In this document: positions 50,299 to 58,072 of the stretch, one piece after another
How positions within the stretch are numbered: the stretch's first letter is position 1
Layout: each line of letters opens with the position of its first letter
Assembly (NCBI GenBank): GCA_001632435.1
Contig: KV423940.1
Coordinates: forward strand, 109,349-173,348
Direction of reading: 5' to 3'
DNA from: Calocera cornea HHB12733
Lineage: Eukaryota > Basidiomycota > Dacrymycetes > Dacrymycetales > Dacrymycetaceae
DNA length: 64,000 nt
The notes under the pieces: model-generated
Told to the model about the DNA's origin: nothing
Seen by the model: the letters and a program-made list of their open reading frames with translations, nothing else
The model's database searches: none
Program-made: the position numbers and the translations under genes

Positions 50299-50725
50299 CC
50301 CAGCGTGCTTCTTCTGCCTTCTTCGTCGCTACTGCGGAGCTGCTGGGGTGGATACGGTGTGTGGTCTGCTGGGTGCGCCGGGGCGGGTGCGGGTGCGGGT
50401 GCGGGTGCGGGGCGATGGGTTGTGATGCGCTTGTGCGAGTAGTGTGCTGCGATCGATGGCGCGCCGGGAGGGGATGCGATATCGATAGGCAAGGGGACCG
50501 GACAGGGACGCTAGCACTCGTCCTCCTCTCCTCTCCTCTCCTGTCCTCTCGTCCAGGATAGAGGGGTGAGACGGCTCGGGATCAGTAGGGAGGGAGCATG
50601 CCCTGCATCGGACGCTGCTGTGTGGGATCGAGGCGAGCGAGGCGGCGCAAGGGAGGGGTCATGCAACGCAGCGCAACGCAGCCGGCCGGGTCGCTCCTGC
50701 TGGCGGCCGCGCAGGGGCTGTGCTC
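50299..50725. promoter_or_regulatory. RhoGEF promoter, remaining left part of an interrupted divergent promoter
   Basis: This holds a GCGGGT tandem repeat (four units, 50383-50406) and a CCTCT-type pyrimidine tract (50521-50545). The MULE begins about 440 bp upstream of the RhoGEF start codon. Confidence 0.5.
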
Positions 50726-50735
50726 TGCTCTGCAC
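50726..50735. repeat. Putative target-site duplication, left copy
   Basis: TGCTCTGCAC is repeated exactly at 56285-56294, in the same orientation, immediately outside the element. Ten bp lies in the 8-11 bp range typical of Mutator-like elements. Confidence 0.75.
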
Positions 50736-50743
50736 CGGTCTTG

Positions 50744-50759
50744 ACTTTCCGCATCACCC
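50744..50759 (+). repeat. Left terminal inverted repeat core
   Basis: ACTTTCCGCATCACCC matches the reverse complement of 56262-56277 at all 16 bases. Beyond it the ends diverge. It is the likely transposase recognition core. Confidence 0.85.
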
Positions 50760-50933
50760 TCCTGTCACCGGAAGCAGACTGCACATTCCAGTGCCCCAAT
50801 CCGGAGTTGTCCCTACCAGTGCACCATCTCGTAAAGAATAACAGACTGCTGTATTGTTATGATTGTCTGCAGGCTGCGCATCCGTCCCCCATGCCCCATT
50901 CATGATTCTTTCTTTCCCAGGCTGCGCTCCAGC

Positions 50934-53279
50934 ATGGATTCTTCATTTCCACTGGGCGGCTTTGCAAGTGACCTCCGGAGTGGACGCTATACCCATATCT
51001 GGGATAGTGTTGAAGATTTCCATATATGGCGAGCTGAAGAAGAACGCACCGAATTGATTCAACTTGGCAAGCGCCAGGTCTTGCATGGGGACAAGAAGGC
51101 TCAAACTCGATCACCAGTATATCTTGAGAGGCGTGTCTGGGTGTGTACTCGTGATGGTACTGGTGGAGTTAAATCGTATGAGAAAAAGCATCCTGAATGG
51201 ACACGGAAGGTTCCAAGCAAGAGGGTGCGCAGCCTAGCCTTGTACCTAGTTCCTATTACTAATTCTGCTCTAGACTGGATGTGAATGCTTTCTCATCACG
51301 AAGACCTATCCGCACACACCCAAGGTCCTTGGCCGCTATCATGCAGTCCATTCTCACCTCATTGGGGACCCAAATGCACCTTTTGTCCGCGTTCAGCCCC
51401 AAACCCGAGCCTACATTGAGGAAATGCTGCGGTTGAAAGTAGAGCCACGAGAAATCTTGCGAATTGTCCATGGTTCTGCATATGAGCCTGGAGGAGCGAC
51501 CTTAATGGAGCGAGACCATTTTGTCACCATGAGGGATATTAAACGGCTCCAGGTGCGCAGCCTAATCCTCCAAACAGGCTGCGCTTGCCCTACTGATGCG
51601 CAGCCTGTATCTTAGCTTGCCGTGCGTGCTGAAGATGTCCGACTGGCCCACGGGGATGATCTGTCCACACAAAGGTGGATCAGCAGGCTGCGCGAACACC
51701 ATTCCCTGTTGGGTTCAAAGCTGGTTCATGAGGCTGCGCCGCCCACCTCTTACATGGATCCAAACACGATGTTTATTGCCATTCAGACTCCCTGGCAGAA
51801 GAAGGTGTTTTCTGAAATTGGCGACCATATTATGTGTATTGACGATACTCATAATGTAACGCAATACTACAAGGTCACACTGTTCACCTTGTTATGCCGT
51901 GATCATTGGGGGCATGGTATTTTTTTCCCCTGCCTTCCAGGCTGCGCAGCCTGATAGTTTTCCAGGCATTCCGGTGGGCTGGCTGCTTACATCCAATGGG
52001 GAATCTCTCACCCTTCAATATTGGCTACGGCTGTTTCGAGAAGCAAACTCAGTGACACCCAACTATGTTATGACCGACAAGAATCAGGCTCAGATATCTG
52101 CTATTCGCGCAGTCTTCCCATCTGCAACTGTTCTTCTTTGCTGGTGGCATGTTCTCCATGCATGGCAGCAACATCTTCGTATTGCCGATCATCCCGACCT
52201 CTGGAATCTGTTGAAAAAATGGATTCGCATCCAGGACGAAGTTGAATTTGACCAACACTGGGGCCAGATTTATGCTTTATCGCCCCCAAAGTTTCAGCAG
52301 TACCTTCTCCTCAACTGGACTTTGGACAAGCCTATGTGGTCCGCGGTCTCCCGACAGGACCGGCACATCTTTGAGGAGGTGCATACCAATATGCATATTG
52401 AAGCGTGCGCAGTCTAACCCTCCAGGCTGCGCCTCGTTGCTGATCCTCTGCACAGATGGCATCATGTTCTCAAATCTACCTTCTTACACGGTGCCCGAAA
52501 TCGTCGAATGGATGATCTCCTTCATACTTTGACAACAGAAGTAGCTGCACATTATGCACTCCAATACCGACGGCAGCAGGGAGGATTTGAGGGCCTCAAC
52601 CTTGCAGCCCAGGCTCGAATTAAGGCTGAGTCAGATGGGGCCAAGATTTTGGCTGAAGATGTCTTGGTGCGCAGTCTGACATTCCCTCCAGGCTGCGCTC
52701 ATCCAGTTTCCCCTTCAGAGCCAGGGCCTGGATATGTACACTGTCCGGTCCCAGACAGATTCCCGCAAGGTCTACAAGGTTGACATGGAGAGTGCCATCT
52801 GCGAATGCGCAGCCTATCCACGAATCCAGTTCTGCAAGCATCTGGCTGCAGTCGAAATCCATTTCCCACGAGGTCAGGCTGCGCAGCTGCTGGTGGCTCC
52901 CAATGTTGAAGAAGCAGCGCTGGAGCTTAAAGCCACACCCGAGCAAGAAGACCAGCCAACCCGAGAATTGCAAGTCATCCAGGTGCCCCTTGCCGATCGC
53001 CTCTATTCCCGGGCCATTCAACTTTCCCAGATGCTTTCAGCAAACATTGAAGAGCAGTTTAGCGATGAAATCAAGCAGCTATTGGCTGTGATGGATACCA
53101 TCTTGGCCCAGGCTGCGCCTCGCCCTGGATCTCTCCCGGCAGCCCTGAAGCTCCCTCCCAACATGACAAATGCCAACGAGACTGCGAAAACCCTGCCGCA
53201 CCGCAAGCGACGGGCCAAAGGCCAAGCGCAGCCTTATGCCGGTCGTCCGTCTCGAGCGCAGCCTGTACTGCCTGCATAG
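50934..53279 (+). CDS. MULE transposase with SWIM zinc finger
   Basis: Six exons (50934-51224, 51274-51552, 51616-51916, 51966-52404, 52456-52666, 52719-53279) give 693 residues in perfect phase with no internal stop. The N-terminal part has a Cys-containing DNA-binding-like region (TGCECFLITKTYP...LGRYHAVHSH). The DDE-type core includes MCIDDTHNVTQYY, SNGESLTLQYWLRLF, MTDKNQAQISAIRAVFPSA and LLCWWHVLHAWQ. The SWIM finger is CECAAYPRIQFCKHLAAVE. The tail is basic (HRKRRAKGQ). The catalytic Asp candidates are in IDDTH and MTDKNQ, and the Glu probably lies in the region after WHV. All five introns carry the element's palindrome, and four of them start with it. A Met at 50859 is in frame, but 50934 fits better. 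Confidence 0.9.
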
Positions 53280-53380
53280 CACAATGAAATGTAATTGCAA
53301 GTACCTAAGCTTGATCACTACTCAGGCTGCGCATCACACTTGGAACGCCTCCATCCGACAACCCCCAGACTGCGCTGCAC

Positions 53381-56103
53381 TTACACCTCCGGCGCGTCAT
53401 CGTAAACACGCCCGACCTTGAAGAATTCGGTAGCAATCCACGAACGGCGCAGCCTGAAGTACCCGACAGCCTTGCGCGTACCCTGGATGGTGACAATGTA
53501 CCGGCCAGTCATTGCACTCTGAAGGTTAAGGGCATGGACCGGCTTGAACCTCGCCTGCGTCCAAGGTTAACCTCCAGGCTGCGCAGCGCGGGCGACCAAC
53601 ATACCTCATCCTGGTACAATTCGTGCATGTGCTCTGCGCTGATTCCCAGCAACGACTCTGCTGCAGTGTTGAAGGCAGTAACGTGCGCGCGCTGTCCATT
53701 CCGGTCGATCAAAGAGAACTGCAAACAATATCTAGAGAGATGGCTGATCAGCCTGCCCAGGCTGCGCAGCCTGAGGAACCATGGCACTTACTTGGGAACG
53801 GGAAAAAAGAATGCTTGTCCACAGAGCGGGCAGTGATAGAAGTGATCCGCCGCAACATCACCCAGATCCACCTTGCGATTGCAGTTTGGCGTCGCGCAAC
53901 CTTGGTATGTCACCGATTTGGCTTCATCGAACTCGATCGTACCTTCAATGCGAAAGGTACCAGTACGGAGATCCTCGTCCAGCTTCTCACGGTATACTTC
54001 AGCAATGGTCTTGAGCGGCGGTACGGTTAACAGGCTGCGCGTTCTCAGCGAGCGTGCTCCATCGGCGCTGCAGGCTGCGCTCAAGACATGCCATTGCGCG
54101 GGGTCATCCTTGGCAAAGTCCCACCTGAAATCCCTGTGAGTGCGCAGCCTGAAGAGCTTGGACAGAGCGACAAACCAAGCCAGCAACTCAGCATGATTTG
54201 GCACCTCATCATCCCAAAGGATCTGGGTGTGGGCAGCGTCAGTCCGGATGGACAGACCGCGCGACTTGTCGACAAGGACGTTCTTGAGAAGGGCAACTCT
54301 TCCGTCCGATCCCTCCAAGCGGCGCCAGAACTGGTCAAAGGCAATAAAGTGCCCAACGTGCCCCCCCTCGTCAGCGACCCACATGTCCATGCGGGTCGTG
54401 GAAGCCGGTTGAGCATGGTCCTGCCAATGGTCAGGCTGCGCAGCCTGGGGGACGGGAAGGGCACTCACAAAGCTCGCCTCATGTGGCGCACGCCCATACA
54501 TGACGTTGCTTGTGTTGACGATGATGCACGCAACATCTGGGTGAAATGTCAGGACCCACACCCAGGCTGCGCAGCCTGCAGAGACGCACCAACAGGTTTG
54601 CGATCAGGAATGCTGGGGAGCTGGGCGATCTTCCGCAGGTTGAGGTGCATACGCGGGATCGTGCCATCATCTGGAACCTGTTCCAACGTCAGCTCAGGCT
54701 GCGCTCCAGGCATCCGCGCAGCCTGAGCACTCACCTCCAGGAACTCTGCCTCTGGGGCAACAAAGACCAGCTGTGCGGGATGGTACGAGCGACACCAGTG
54801 CTGCACCGATGCAACCACGTTGAGATTGGTCACGCAGTATACCTGGAAGCGCAGCCTGGTCAGAGCGATACAATGCTCACCCAGGCTGCGCACTCACCTT
54901 GCCCACCTGGATCCCCTCGGCACGCTCAAAGGCTGACATCTTCGGGTCCTTGCACTGCTTGACAACAAGGTCGATCTCGGAACCGGCATCGTGCAACACG
55001 AGGTCGACGGTTTTGTTGCGTGGAGTGATGCGGGACACTCGCCCAATGACATAAACACTGCAGACGGTCAGCGTATGCGCAGCCTGGGAGGTGGGCGACT
55101 CACTTGCGGTTGTACGCCACAACTTCTTGGATGGGCGTGATCTTTGGGGGTGGTCCCCACCCAGGCATCTGCCAAGGGAGAGGGTCAGGCTGCGCCGCCG
55201 CCCCAGGGAGCAGTCCAGGATTCTCTGCGTAGTGCTGCACAGCCTCGGCATCCAGCGGTTCGTTCATCGGGAAGTCTTGATCGACCACGTATGCACGGGG
55301 CTCAGGTGGGCGGGGAACGACTGGCTGGGACTGGGCGATGAGGTGGTCTGGGACATCCCCTACCCCAACGATGGTGACTGCCCCATGGGGCGGAGCGTGT
55401 CCAGGAGCCCCACCAGGCTGCGCAGCCTGCTCAGGCTGGGGAGGACGAAGAGGTTGCTGGGGGCCGGTTCCACCAGGCTGCGCAGCCTGCAGGCCCGGAG
55501 CAAGAGCATGGTCCACAGCGGGTGGAGCAGAGCCTTGAGAGGATGGCTGCGAGTCGACTGCTTCGTTGGGCGCGGCAATCCAGTTCAGAGAGCGGAGATA
55601 CCCATCGTACGGACAGTTGATACGCTCCCAGTGGGGAGGAGGGTCGGGGCGGCCAATGAAGCCGTTGAAGCCCTGGATGCGGTCGACCTCGTAAACGATG
55701 ATTGATAACCTGGGCTAAAGTCAGTAGGATTCAGGCTGCGCAGCCTAGAGAGACGCACCCATCGCCAAAGTTTGTCACCCAACGCTCAGCCGCTACAATG
55801 TCCACTACGTCGTACAGCCTGAGTGCCCCGGTGCGCAGCCTTGCGATGAGCTCGGGTCCGGCAACGATATTGGCGACCTGAAGGAGACCATCACTGAGGG
55901 TCAGACTGTGCAAGAACGGTCAGGCTGCGCCTCCCAGGCCAGGATAGATGAACTCACTGCCAGAATGGTGGATCCAGCGGCTCGCCTTCGTCGTCGGCTT
56001 CTTCGTAGAGGTTGATCAGCTGTACGCGAGTGTTGGGCTCTCCGGGCGCAAGGTCAGCGGCCAGGAGAGCCTCCAGGACTCCTCCATCCAGAGCAGGGGG
56101 CAT
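53381..56103 (-). CDS. RPA1-like single-strand DNA-binding protein encoded in the MULE
   Basis: Ten exons (56103-55958, 55905-55759, 55709-55104, 55057-54898, 54842-54735, 54677-54590, 54536-54469, 54420-53792, 53731-53605, 53554-53381) give 750 residues in phase. The order follows replication protein A large subunit. An N-terminal OB-like part is HLTLSDGLLQVANIVAG...GALRLYDVVDIVAAERWV. A Pro/Gln linker follows, then DBD-A (YVIGRVSRITPRNKTVDLVLHD), DBD-B (DQFWRRLEGSDGRVALLKNV) and DBD-C. DBD-C has a Cys4-type zinc ribbon (CATPNCNRKV ... YHCPLCG), followed by LLGISAEHMHELYQDE. It is divergent from what I know of host RPA1, so it is likely a captured copy under separate evolution. All nine introns contain the palindrome. 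Confidence 0.87.
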
Positions 56104-56261
56104 GCGTAAGTCAAGCGGAAGAATCGGGCAGTCAGTTAGCAGTGGATCGGGGGAGAGGATGAGACAGTGAGGAGAGAGCGTGCCAGCAGGGCCGAACGGA
56201 GGCGCAGCCTAGCCGAGGCACGGAGGCAAATGTGCGGAGGCACATTCCAATGTTTACCTCC

Positions 56262-56277
56262 GGGTGATGCGGAAAGT
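56262..56277 (-). repeat. Right terminal inverted repeat core
   Basis: GGGTGATGCGGAAAGT is the exact inverted partner of 50744-50759. Confidence 0.85.
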
Positions 56278-56284
56278 ACGCAAG

Positions 56285-56294
56285 TGCTCTGCAC
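56285..56294. repeat. Putative target-site duplication, right copy
   Basis: TGCTCTGCAC, the same as 50726-50735. It lies about 80 bp upstream of the methyltransferase start codon. Confidence 0.75.
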
Positions 56295-56374
56295 AGCCGC
56301 TGATCGGCACACGGGCAGGCCGGGGCCGACTCAACCGCGCCGAGTCTGTATCCACTGCTGCACTTGCTCGCTCC

Positions 56375-58072
56375 ATGGCCTCCCCGTCCTCGTCCTCCCC
56401 GCCCAAGCGCACGTCCTCGGTGCACCCGCTCGGCGCGGCTCCGCCCTTCGGCTCGCGCTTCCTGACCGCGCAGCAGGACGTGTGGTCCAAGAACGCGTGG
56501 GACCACGTGCCGCCGCCTGCGGACCAGGGGGAGCGGGTGCGGGAGGCGCTCGAGCGGCAGGAGCGGGGTCGGGTGCCGCCCGAGCTGCAGGGTGCGTGCG
56601 CTCGCCTGCTCTCTCTCCCCCTCGCTGCGCCTCTCCCTCCCAGCACTAGCACTGACAGGCCCCTTCCCACAGAGAAATACAACACCTCCCCGTCGACCTA
56701 CTGGGACGCCTTCTACACGCTCAACCGCTCAAACTTCTTCAAAGACCGCAAGTGGCTCTCCCTCGAGTTCCCCGAGCTGCACGCCCTCGCCCAGCCCGGC
56801 GCGGGGCCAGCGACGCTCTGGGAGGTCGGGTGCGGCGTCGGGAACGCGCTGTTCCCGCTCTGGGAGGCGTGCGAGAACGGCCGGCTCAGGCTCGTCGGGT
56901 GCGATTATTCCAGGACCGCGGTCGACGTCATACACGTATGCGCCTCCCATCCTCCCGCTTCCACACCCACTGACCCCGCACCAGGCAAACCCGGTCTACC
57001 AATCCGCCCCGCGCGCCCGGCTGCAAGCAGAGGTCTGGGACCTCGCCTCCCCCGCCGGTCTCCCCGCATGCATAGAACCAGGGAGCGTGGACGTTGTCCT
57101 GCTGATATTTGTGTTGTCGGCGCTGCACCCGGGAGAGTGGGCGCGGGCGGTGGAGAACGTCTGGCGTGTACGTGCTCCCCTTCTCTTCCCTCCGCCCCGC
57201 CGTCGCTCGTTCCCCCCTAACCCCCCACCCCCCCCCAGGCCCTAAAACCAGGCGGCCTCGTCCTCCTCCGCGACTACGGCAGGCACGACCTCACCCAGCT
57301 CCGCTTCCGCAGCAACAGGCTGATGCAGCCGAACCTCTACGTGCGGGGCGACGGGACGCGGGTGTACTATTTTGAGGCTGGGGAGCTGGCGGGGATCTGG
57401 ACGGGGAGGGAGGAGCTGCCGGAGGGGATGGGGGGGACGCGGGAGGAGGAGGAGGGGGTTGAGGTCGAAGTCGATGTCGATGTCGAGGGGTCGGGTACGC
57501 CAGCGGTGGGAGAGGCGGAGGAGCTGCCTGTACCGGCTGAAGAGACTACAGAGTGCGCCGACGTCCCGGTAGAACCTCCCGCCGCACTCCCAAGTGCCTC
57601 ACACACCGCCACCGCCCCTCCCGAGCCCTCCGAGCCCTCCCAGCCCCTCTTCCAACCTGCGGAGCTCGCCCAGCTTACGCTCTCCGGTCCCTCAGAACCG
57701 CGATCCCCAGAGCCTAGATCTTCAGAAGCTGCCGATCCACCAGAGGCCAGCGCTTCAAGCAATGGAGAGACGTCCGTCCCCTCGCCCACCTCGTCGCAGC
57801 CGGCCAACCCGGACGTACCAACCCTGCCGGACCCGCTTCCCGCCGCTCCCGCCCCGAACGACCCACCGGCCGCTCCCCTCGCTCCCGATGCCCCATCCCT
57901 CGAGCCTCTCCCGCCCCTCCCACCCCTCCCCCCCCATCCCCTATTCAAGACCCTCCAGCTGGGTGTCGACCGCCGCCTGCTCGTGAACCGCAAGCGGCAG
58001 CTGAAGATGTATCGCGTGTGGATGCAGGGCAAGTTCCAGAAGCTCCCACAGCCTGACCCTCTGACCCTCTGA
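56375..58072 (+). CDS. TRM140: tRNA(Thr) cytosine(32)-N3 methyltransferase (TRM140/METTL2-like)
   Basis: An S-adenosylmethionine-dependent enzyme forming m3C at position 32 in the anticodon loop of tRNA(Thr), and probably tRNA(Ser). It has about 500 residues in four exons, all joining in phase. Marks: GSRFLTAQQDVWSKNAWDHV at the N-terminus, YWDAFYTLNRSNFFKDRKWL, the SAM motif LWEVGCGVGNALFPL, VLLIFVLSALHPGEWA, GGLVLLRDYGRHDLTQLRF and RGDGTRVYYFE. The C-terminus is LGVDRRLLVNRKRQLKMYRVWMQGKF. An insert of roughly 175 residues, first acidic (EEEEGVEVEVDVDV), then Ser/Pro-rich, separates the last catalytic strand from this C-terminal motif; in METTL2 the two are close together. The MULE lies in its upstream region, leaving only about 80 bp of original sequence. 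Confidence 0.92.

What the first reader, a model, noticed from the sequence alone, without database searches (positions are those of the whole stretch)
50870..56210. A private palindromic repeat occurs in all 14 introns of the two element genes
Seen: CAGGCTGCGCAGCCTG or a half is in 5 of 5 transposase introns and 9 of 9 RPA-like introns, although the two genes are unrelated and on opposite strands. Introns are only about 46-63 nt, so the motif fills a large share of each. No other gene in the window shows it. Possible explanations: dispersed transposase-binding sites (as in subterminal arrays of CACTA or hAT elements) tolerated best in introns; introns born from small insertions (introner-like); or a shared splicing or silencing-escape signal.
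Basis: seen in the sequence. Interest (0 to 1): 0.88.

Follow-up and report, generated by a model that had tools for sequence, protein, structure and literature searches.

The report
Shared palindrome arrays in fungal transposons
Several unrelated families of jumping genes in the jelly fungus Calocera cornea carry dozens of copies of a short mirror-image DNA word along their whole length, even inside protein-coding sequence, mostly together with a gene derived from a DNA-replication protein, which looks like a shared, swappable system for marking or protecting the element's own DNA.

Summary
The window (Calocera cornea HHB12733) holds a MULE transposon (about 50744-56277) with a transposase gene and an RPA70-like gene. 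All 5 transposase introns and all 10 RPA-like introns (the finding counted 9) contain the motif. It is not intron-specific: 17 of 46 half-sites lie in exons, in several reading frames, far above synonymous shuffles (7 vs 0.2; 10 vs 0.7). Against a copy 85% identical overall, 44 of 46 sites are kept.

It is not private to this element. AGGNTGCGC arrays fill two PIF/Harbinger lineages; four Harbinger loci also carry an RPA-like gene. Helitrons, several with an RPA-like gene, carry other CpG-centred palindromes: ACNNTGCGCANNGT, AANTGGCGC and, less strongly, CACGTG. Over 32 sequences enrichment is nearly one class per element; 10 show none. Sites run end to end, on average one per 120-190 bp, more evenly than chance in 7 of 13 sequences. 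RPA-like introns keep their positions across motif classes, so introns predate motifs: not introners.

Best reading: a transferable module, an RPA-derived protein plus its element-wide target sites, probably for sequence-specific anti-silencing like Arabidopsis VANC/VANDAL. Binding and function are untested.

The parts
50744..56277 (.). MULE transposon with two converging genes and 46 AGGNTGCGC half-sites (44 with N = C)
   Evidence: Inverted termini ACTTTCCGCATCACCC / GGGTGATGCGGAAAGT, seen by eye; site counts. Second copy C11:337943-343328, 85% identical.
50744..50759 (+). left terminal inverted repeat core
   Evidence: reverse complement of 56262-56277; 9-bp GTGCTCTGC at 50720-50728 and 56284-56292 is a possible target-site duplication 15 and 6 bases outside, insecure because the word also occurs at 53629
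56262..56277 (-). right terminal inverted repeat core
50934..53279 (+). MULE transposase gene, 697 aa, 6 exons; 7 half-sites in exons (starting 51685, 51731, 52807, 52876, 53110, 53226, 53256)
   Evidence: PF10551 MULE 3e-15; gene model; 7 exonic sites versus 0.23 in synonymous shuffles, maximum 2 in 1000
51225..51273 (+). transposase intron 1; donor is part of the motif (GTGCGCAGCCT)
51553..51615 (+). transposase intron 2; three half-sites, donor GTGCGCAGCCT
51917..51965 (+). transposase intron 3; full 16-bp palindrome 51938-51953
52405..52455 (+). transposase intron 4; one exact half-site and a variant (GCGCAGTCT) at the donor
52667..52706 (+). transposase intron 5; one exact half-site and a variant (GCGCAGTCT) at the donor
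53381..56103 (-). RPA70-like gene, 733 aa (CALCODRAFT_481541), 11 exons; 10 half-sites in exons, including full palindromes 55414-55429 and 55474-55489
   Evidence: PF08646 Rep_fac-A_C 1.1e-14 on my first 751-aa model; deposited protein reproduced exactly; 10 exonic sites versus 0.69 in synonymous shuffles, maximum 4 in 1000; profile hit to RPA 4gnx 4.8e-19
55906..55957 (-). RPA-like intron 1, one half-site
55710..55758 (-). RPA-like intron 2, palindrome 55732-55747 (15 of 16)
55058..55103 (-). RPA-like intron 3, one half-site
54843..54897 (-). RPA-like intron 4, two half-sites
54678..54734 (-). RPA-like intron 5, two half-sites
54537..54589 (-). RPA-like intron 6, full palindrome 54563-54578
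54421..54468 (-). RPA-like intron 7, full palindrome 54432-54447
54125..54175 (-). RPA-like intron 8 (not in the finding's count), one half-site; position conserved in the family
   Evidence: column 589
53732..53791 (-). RPA-like intron 9, full palindrome 53758-53773; position conserved in the family
   Evidence: column 702
53555..53604 (-). RPA-like intron 10, one half-site

Best explanation
The motif is the cognate DNA site of an element-encoded RPA70-like protein, and the pair (protein gene plus element-wide array of sites) is an accessory module shared among mechanistically unrelated DNA transposons of Calocera cornea. Shown: the arrays, their conservation, their element-specific sequence, and RPA-like genes in MULE, PIF/Harbinger and Helitron elements. 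Inferred: that the RPA-like protein binds the sites; inverted half-sites at fixed offsets with freely varying N positions fit a dimer on double-stranded DNA. Inferred from spacing and analogy: coating the element with on average one site per 120-190 bp keeps its chromatin open or unmethylated (sequence-specific anti-silencing, as VANC does for VANDAL elements). Introns have the highest density because they are the cheapest place for sites; in the intronless Helitron ORF the sites are written into coding sequence.
For: Nearly one motif class per element over 32 sequences: AGGNTGCGC in MULE C27 and C11, Harbinger C2, C83, C53, C62, C14, C18, in C179, and in second-lineage Harbinger C268 and C38; ACNNTGCGC in C36, C118, C258; AANTGGCGC in C21, C140; CACGTG in C45, C116, C67, C23. 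RPA-like genes. Selection: 44 of 46 sites kept between C27 and C11; all 66 transposase-exon motif bases identical versus 74.6% of other bases; intact 9-mers outside motifs 9.1% (transposase exon), 0 of 72 (transposase intron), 23.6% (RPA intron), 58.5% (RPA exon). Coding sites exceed synonymous shuffles. Helitron C36 spacing CV 0.58 versus 0.91 in a hard-core null, 0 of 2000. Offsets: 52 pairs at +5 and 13 at +7 among 276 half-sites of eight non-MULE class A loci. N positions complement in 19 of 52 pairs, expected fraction 0.289, p = 0.22, so no hairpin. All four classes centre on CG; DNA-methylase matches exist in the genome. RPA70 relatedness.
Against: No binding, methylation or expression data. 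RPA normally binds single-stranded DNA. The MULE and Harbinger RPA-like proteins are only 30-33% identical yet share class A, and the clade joining them (which also includes motif-free C48) is unsupported (47/49). Class A elements C14, C18, C268 and C38 show no RPA-like gene in what was read, so they would need the protein in trans; only 4 of the 10 Harbinger loci have an RPA-like hit. RPA-like C48 and C148 show none of the four motifs, nor do the 2-kb ORF pieces of Helitrons C125, C28, C7, C48. Class D is modest and only C67 of its four Helitrons has a located RPA-like hit (E 9.5e-5). C21 and C140 also show small class B excesses. Spacing of the window element itself is not significant against the hard-core null (P = 0.10; 0.026 against plain random placement). 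CpG observed/expected is lower in the MULE copies (0.72-0.73) and Harbinger C2 (0.86) than in host DNA (0.98); Helitrons are at 1.0.
Confidence: 0.5

Rival explanations
1. Same module, other job: the RPA-like protein reads the 9-nt half-site as single-stranded DNA, as telomere OB-fold proteins read theirs, and coats the element's single strands during rolling-circle transposition, replication or gap repair, favouring complete copying of the element.
For: RPA70 relatedness with fold hits to RPA, POT1, Teb1 and CST (low-confidence model); plant Helitrons carry RPA-like genes (PMC4683698, abstract and section 13); most sites are half-sites in both orientations; RPA-like genes lie near several Helitron ORFs here.
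Against: The excess of inverted pairs at offsets +5 and +7 is better explained by a dimer on duplex DNA; cut-and-paste MULE and Harbinger elements have no long single-stranded stage that I know of (recalled).
Confidence: 0.25
2. The motifs are sites of host factors that several element families exploit independently; the RPA-like gene is a passenger.
For: CACGTG is a common bHLH site (recalled); some class A elements show no RPA-like gene in what was read (C14, C18, C268, C38).
Against: Motif class follows the element, and host sequence in the window is at or below chance for all four classes.
Confidence: 0.12
3. Transposase-binding sites, as in subterminal arrays of CACTA or hAT elements.
For: Transposons do use short repeated binding sites (recalled); motif identity tracks elements.
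Against: One motif is shared by a MULE transposase (PF10551) and two DDE_Tnp_4 lineages; sites span the whole element.
Confidence: 0.06
4. Introner-like origin: the introns were born from insertion of small motif-bearing units; or the motif is a splicing signal.
For: Every intron carries it: 51 of 51 in six deposited RPA-like genes and 5 of 5 in the transposase; four of five transposase donors are part of the motif or a one-base variant.
Against: Intron positions and phases are shared by RPA-like genes with different or no motifs; sites also lie in exons and in an uninterrupted Helitron ORF.
Confidence: 0.02

Closest known systems
VANC / VANDAL sequence-specific anti-silencing system of Arabidopsis (Hosaka 2017, PMC5735166: abstract and sections 8 and 9 read; Sasaki 2023, PMC10398659: abstract read)
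   Same: Element-encoded accessory gene in a MULE; short motif at high density in the element, introns of its genes included; motif differs between related families and is sparse elsewhere.
   Different: VANC proteins carry DUF1985, not RPA domains; the VANC21 motif YAGTATTAY is not a palindrome and lies mainly in non-coding tandem repeats in one orientation, in VANDAL elements. Here the sites are palindromic, in both orientations, also in exons, and shared by MULE and PIF/Harbinger elements, with changed sequence in Helitrons.
RPA-like genes of plant Helitrons (Roffler 2015, PMC4683698: abstract and section 13 read)
   Same: RPA70-like gene carried by Helitrons and by a relative without the Rep/helicase gene.
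   Different: No cognate dispersed motif is mentioned in the parts read. Fungal work reports no RPA-like gene in Fusarium Helitrons (PMC5148889, passages) or RPA domain in Pleurotus RepHel ORFs (PMC4289320, passages). Here RPA-like genes also sit in MULE and Harbinger elements.
TET/JBP dioxygenase genes captured by 11 lineages of fungal DNA transposons (Kojima 2025, PMC12730594: abstract and passages read)
   Same: An accessory gene thought to counter silencing, passed between Harbinger, Helitron and other superfamilies in fungi.
   Different: An enzyme; no cognate DNA motif in the passages seen; MULE is not among the lineages listed and Calocera is not mentioned (0 occurrences).
Spm/CACTA TnpA and hAT subterminal repeat arrays (recalled, not looked up)
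   Same: Many short element-specific protein-binding repeats.
   Different: Those cluster near the ends; these cover the whole element.

Membership tests
VANC/VANDAL anti-silencing system | VANC protein with DUF1985 | tested here: not met
   Pfam scan of both window proteins (E up to 0.1) listed MULE-type and Rep_fac-A_C families but no DUF1985
VANC/VANDAL anti-silencing system | Short motif at high density in the element, sparse elsewhere, differing between families | tested here: met
VANC/VANDAL anti-silencing system | Loss of DNA methylation caused by the protein | not testable with these tools
   needs methylation maps; only DNA-methylase family matches were seen
Introner elements | Introns at new positions, created together with the shared sequence | tested here: not met
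   positions and phases shared across motif classes and motif-free genes
Subterminal transposase-binding arrays (CACTA, hAT) | Sites concentrated near the element ends | tested here: not met
   sites lie throughout the window element and the other arrays
Mutator-like element (window element) | MULE transposase domain | tested here: met
   PF10551 3e-15, 56.9 bits against cut-off 27.6
Mutator-like element (window element) | Terminal inverted repeats with a target-site duplication of about 9 bp | tested here: inconclusive
   16-bp inverted termini; 9-bp candidate duplication lies 15 and 6 bases outside them; the terminal words were not found in the C11 locus
RPA70 (replication protein A large subunit) | C-terminal Rep_fac-A_C domain preceded by further OB folds | tested here: met
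   PF08646 1.1e-14; 4gnx 4.8e-19 by profile, covering the C-terminal domain; Foldseek hits to RPA70 (4gop 2.7e-19, TM 0.19-0.28) and RPA70N on a low-confidence model, mean pLDDT 46
Helitron (C36 element) | Helitron_like_N domain plus PIF1 helicase in one protein | tested here: met
   PF14214 8.4e-31 and PF05970 3.1e-18
PIF/Harbinger (C2/C14 and C268 elements) | DDE_Tnp_4 transposase plus Myb/SANT partner | tested here: met
   C14 transposase PF13359 5e-16, C2 partner only a sub-cut-off DUF6818 match 1.7e-5; C268 PF13359 9.8e-12 and Myb_DNA-bind_3 2.6e-16

The most novel reading that the evidence does not exclude
An RPA70-derived, sequence-specific genome-marking module that arose in fungal Helitrons, diversified there into protein/palindrome pairs with different CpG-centred targets, and was then taken over by cut-and-paste MULE and PIF/Harbinger transposons, which rewrote their own genes, exons included, to carry about one target site per nucleosome.
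Probability: 0.4. Interest if true: 0.95.

Novelty: new variant of a known kind. Interest (0 to 1): 0.88.

Why it matters
It points to a second, independently built sequence-specific protection system of transposons, outside plants, with an RPA-derived protein and with targets embedded in coding sequence. Because one target class is shared by three transposase lineages while Helitrons use other targets, the marking function can be separated from the transposition machinery, and the classes form a natural series for testing protein-DNA co-evolution: express the RPA-like proteins and ask whether each prefers its own palindrome. Constraint on synonymous sites gives a general way to look for such systems in other genomes.

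Tried and rejected
Introner origin: rejected by conserved intron positions. Splicing signal: sites also lie in exons and in an uninterrupted ORF. RNA or cruciform hairpin: N positions do not complement beyond chance; no Rfam match in 50500-56500. Transposase sites: see rivals. The structure model was poor (mean pLDDT 46), so no binding surface was argued from it. The tree of 12 RPA-like proteins left the deep order open and warned of long branches. Searches for relatives in other species returned only Calocera cornea proteins (limited by shared 5-residue words, and only about 8000 candidates were scored), which is no evidence of absence.

Results that do not help: Helitron ORF pieces C125, C28, C7 and C48 gave no clear motif. 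Class C is a small set. Spacing against the hard-core null was not significant in 6 of 13 sequences: C27 0.10, C11 0.11, C83 0.08, C14 0.46, C268 0.20, C21 0.84 (there, half-sites within 12 bp were merged and sites isolated by over 900 bp at the ends were dropped). ACNNTGCGCANNGT has 161 genome matches against 37 for the reversed control, and the listed part includes many isolated sites. In one search a 69-72-nt 'intron' of C2, C62 and C179 is coding in the deposited proteins, so the intron counts come. In one search two 57-nt 'introns' of C118 and C258 are probably modelling errors, and class C was scored there by the 6-mer TGGCGC alone. Loci C78, C155, C44, C172 and C34 were not read.

Literature: eight searches; no listed title or abstract start describes RPA-like genes in fungal MULE or Harbinger elements or dispersed palindromes tied to them. 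The library is open-licence only.

Full report
WHAT IS THERE. The window comes from Calocera cornea HHB12733 (Dacrymycetes): the deposited protein CALCODRAFT_481541 lies on a contig of 246,673 bases, the length of the window's contig. At 50744-56277 lies a MULE with inverted termini, a + strand transposase of 697 aa (PF10551) and a - strand RPA70-like protein of 733 aa (PF08646). A second copy on contig C11 is 85% identical overall; outside motifs its RPA exons are 93.5% and its transposase exons 74.6% identical to the window's.

THE MOTIF. The unit is AGGCTGCGC, alone or as the palindrome (C)AGGCTGCGCAGCCT(G). The element has 46 AGGNTGCGC half-sites: 25 in introns, 10 in RPA-like exons, 7 in transposase exons, 4 elsewhere. 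Dinucleotide shuffles give 0.2-0.4. Exonic sites fall in several frames and both orientations and exceed synonymous shuffles in both genes. All 5 transposase introns and all 10 RPA-like introns have at least one.

CONSERVATION. Against the C11 copy 44 of 46 sites persist: 7 of 7 in transposase exons, 10 of 10 in RPA-like exons, 16 of 16 in RPA-like introns, 8 of 9 in transposase introns, 3 of 4 elsewhere. Of 9-mers outside motifs and splice sites, 9.1% are intact in transposase exons, 0 of 72 in transposase introns, 23.6% in RPA-like introns, 58.5% in RPA-like exons and 9.3% in other DNA. The motif is therefore held as DNA, even inside codons; the case is strong in the transposase half and in introns, weak in RPA-like exons.

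OTHER ELEMENTS. The RPA-like protein finds relatives on many contigs; the loci brought in were examined for over-represented words. C2, C83, C53 and C62 combine an RPA-like gene with a DDE_Tnp_4 (PIF/Harbinger) transposase; C179 and C219 hold RPA-like genes at contig ends. C14 and C18 are Harbinger copies without an RPA-like hit; C268 is a second Harbinger lineage, and C38 looks like it by its ORF (by eye). All of these except C219, which was not run, carry AGGNTGCGC, 13 to 61 half-sites each; C219 shows the same word counts as C179. In eight of these loci the N is free (A 116, C 59, T 52, G 49 of 276); the MULE uses C in 44 of 46.

HELITRONS. C36 holds an uninterrupted 1990-codon ORF with Helitron_like_N and PIF1 domains and an RPA-like gene about 4 kb downstream on the other strand. 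It has 103 ACNNTGCGC half-sites in 11.6 kb; 43 are in the ORF versus 4.0 in synonymous shuffles (maximum 12 in 500). C118 and C258 share this class. Helitron ORFs also lie within about 10 kb of the RPA-like hits of C118, C140, C21, C67 and C48; the RPA-like gene is on the opposite strand in C118, C140, C21 and C67, on the same strand in C48, so that pairing is less sure. C21 and C140 show AANTGGCGC. Two-kilobase ORF pieces of C45, C116, C67 and C23 show CACGTG 9, 7, 9 and 9 times against synonymous means of 2.8, 1.1, 2.0 and 1.7, each above the maximum of 400 shuffles, and the C67 RPA-like stretch has 5. Ten Helitrons were sampled this way; four (C125, C28, C7, C48) show none of the four classes. 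In the table of 32 sequences 22 are enriched for a class and 10 for none: those four ORF pieces, RPA-like C48 and C148, MULE relic C235, MULE fragment C202, C49, and 50.6 kb of host DNA. Two sequences, C21 (5 versus 0.4) and C140 (3 versus 0.4), also exceed shuffles for class B.

INTRONS ARE OLDER THAN MOTIFS. In an alignment of 12 RPA-like gene models the phase-2 intron at column 589 is present in 12 of 12 and that at column 702 in 11 of 12 (the model of C179 stops before it), in class A, B and C elements and in C48 and C148, which have no motif. At 589 the class motif is absent in C21 and C258; at 702 each element has its class. In six deposited class A RPA-like proteins that my splicing reproduces exactly, 51 of 51 introns hold a half-site (108 sites in 2,877 bp, 37.5 per kb) against 67 in 12,609 exon bases (5.3 per kb).

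GEOMETRY. In eight non-MULE class A loci plus and minus half-sites pair at offset +5 (52) and +7 (13), and tail to tail at -10 (8) and -12 (5); other offsets between -12 and +30 have at most 3. Class B (C36, C118) has 47 pairs at +5 and one each at 25 and 27. The two N positions complement no more than expected (19 of 52). Mean gaps between site groups are 123-187 bp in 12 of 13 sequences and 225 in C21; spacing is more even than a hard-core random null at P < 0.05 in 7 of 13 (C2, C53, C62, C179, C36, C118, C258). Every class has CG at its centre, an observation on four classes only.

MECHANISM. The one coding feature that I found in elements of all three superfamilies with arrays is the RPA-like gene, so I take it as the reader of the sites; elements without it would use it in trans. 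Why sites would be needed over the whole element, exons included, is best answered by a chromatin-scale function. The precedent is VANC (PMC5735166, sections 8 and 9; PMC10398659, abstract), where an element protein binds motif-dense regions, introns included, and removes silencing. The CG centres and the DNA-methylase matches fit a methylation link without proving it; CpG is depleted in the MULE copies (0.72-0.73) and mildly in Harbinger C2 (0.86), not in Helitrons C36 and C118 (1.0). That Helitrons were the source is inferred from where most deep RPA-like branches sit, not from a supported tree. The alternative that the protein reads single strands is kept at 0.25.

NOVELTY. RPA-like genes in plant Helitrons are known (PMC4683698, abstract and section 13); Fusarium and Pleurotus work found none in the Helitrons studied (PMC5148889, PMC4289320, passages); TET/JBP genes are known to pass between fungal transposon superfamilies (PMC12730594, abstract and passages). 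I found no report of RPA-like genes in fungal MULE or Harbinger elements, or of cognate arrays, in the eight searches named; that is a limited search of an open-licence library.

Noticed in passing
window 50744-56277 versus L005 (C11): The two MULE copies are a mosaic: outside motifs RPA-like exons are 93.5% identical, transposase exons 74.6%, as if one half had been exchanged or converted.
   Followed up: partly
window 51225, 51553, 52405, 52667; second intron of the RPA-like genes in C83, C53, C62, C179: The motif half (or a one-base variant in two window introns) doubles as the 5' splice site, reading GTGCGCANCCT, with a different N in each of the four other copies.
   Followed up: partly
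C34:173059-175165: A further cluster of six class B palindromes; element type not determined.
   Followed up: no
L064:1652-2116 (C36) and the similar ORF at 707-1177 of the joined C118 stretch: An ORF of about 155 aa without Pfam match, conserved by eye between two Helitrons, and a coiled-coil ORF beside the RPA-like gene.
   Followed up: no
C179 and C219 contig ends (L057, L058): Two contigs end with RPA-like stretches giving identical hit ranges and word counts, perhaps an assembly break inside a repeated element.
   Followed up: no
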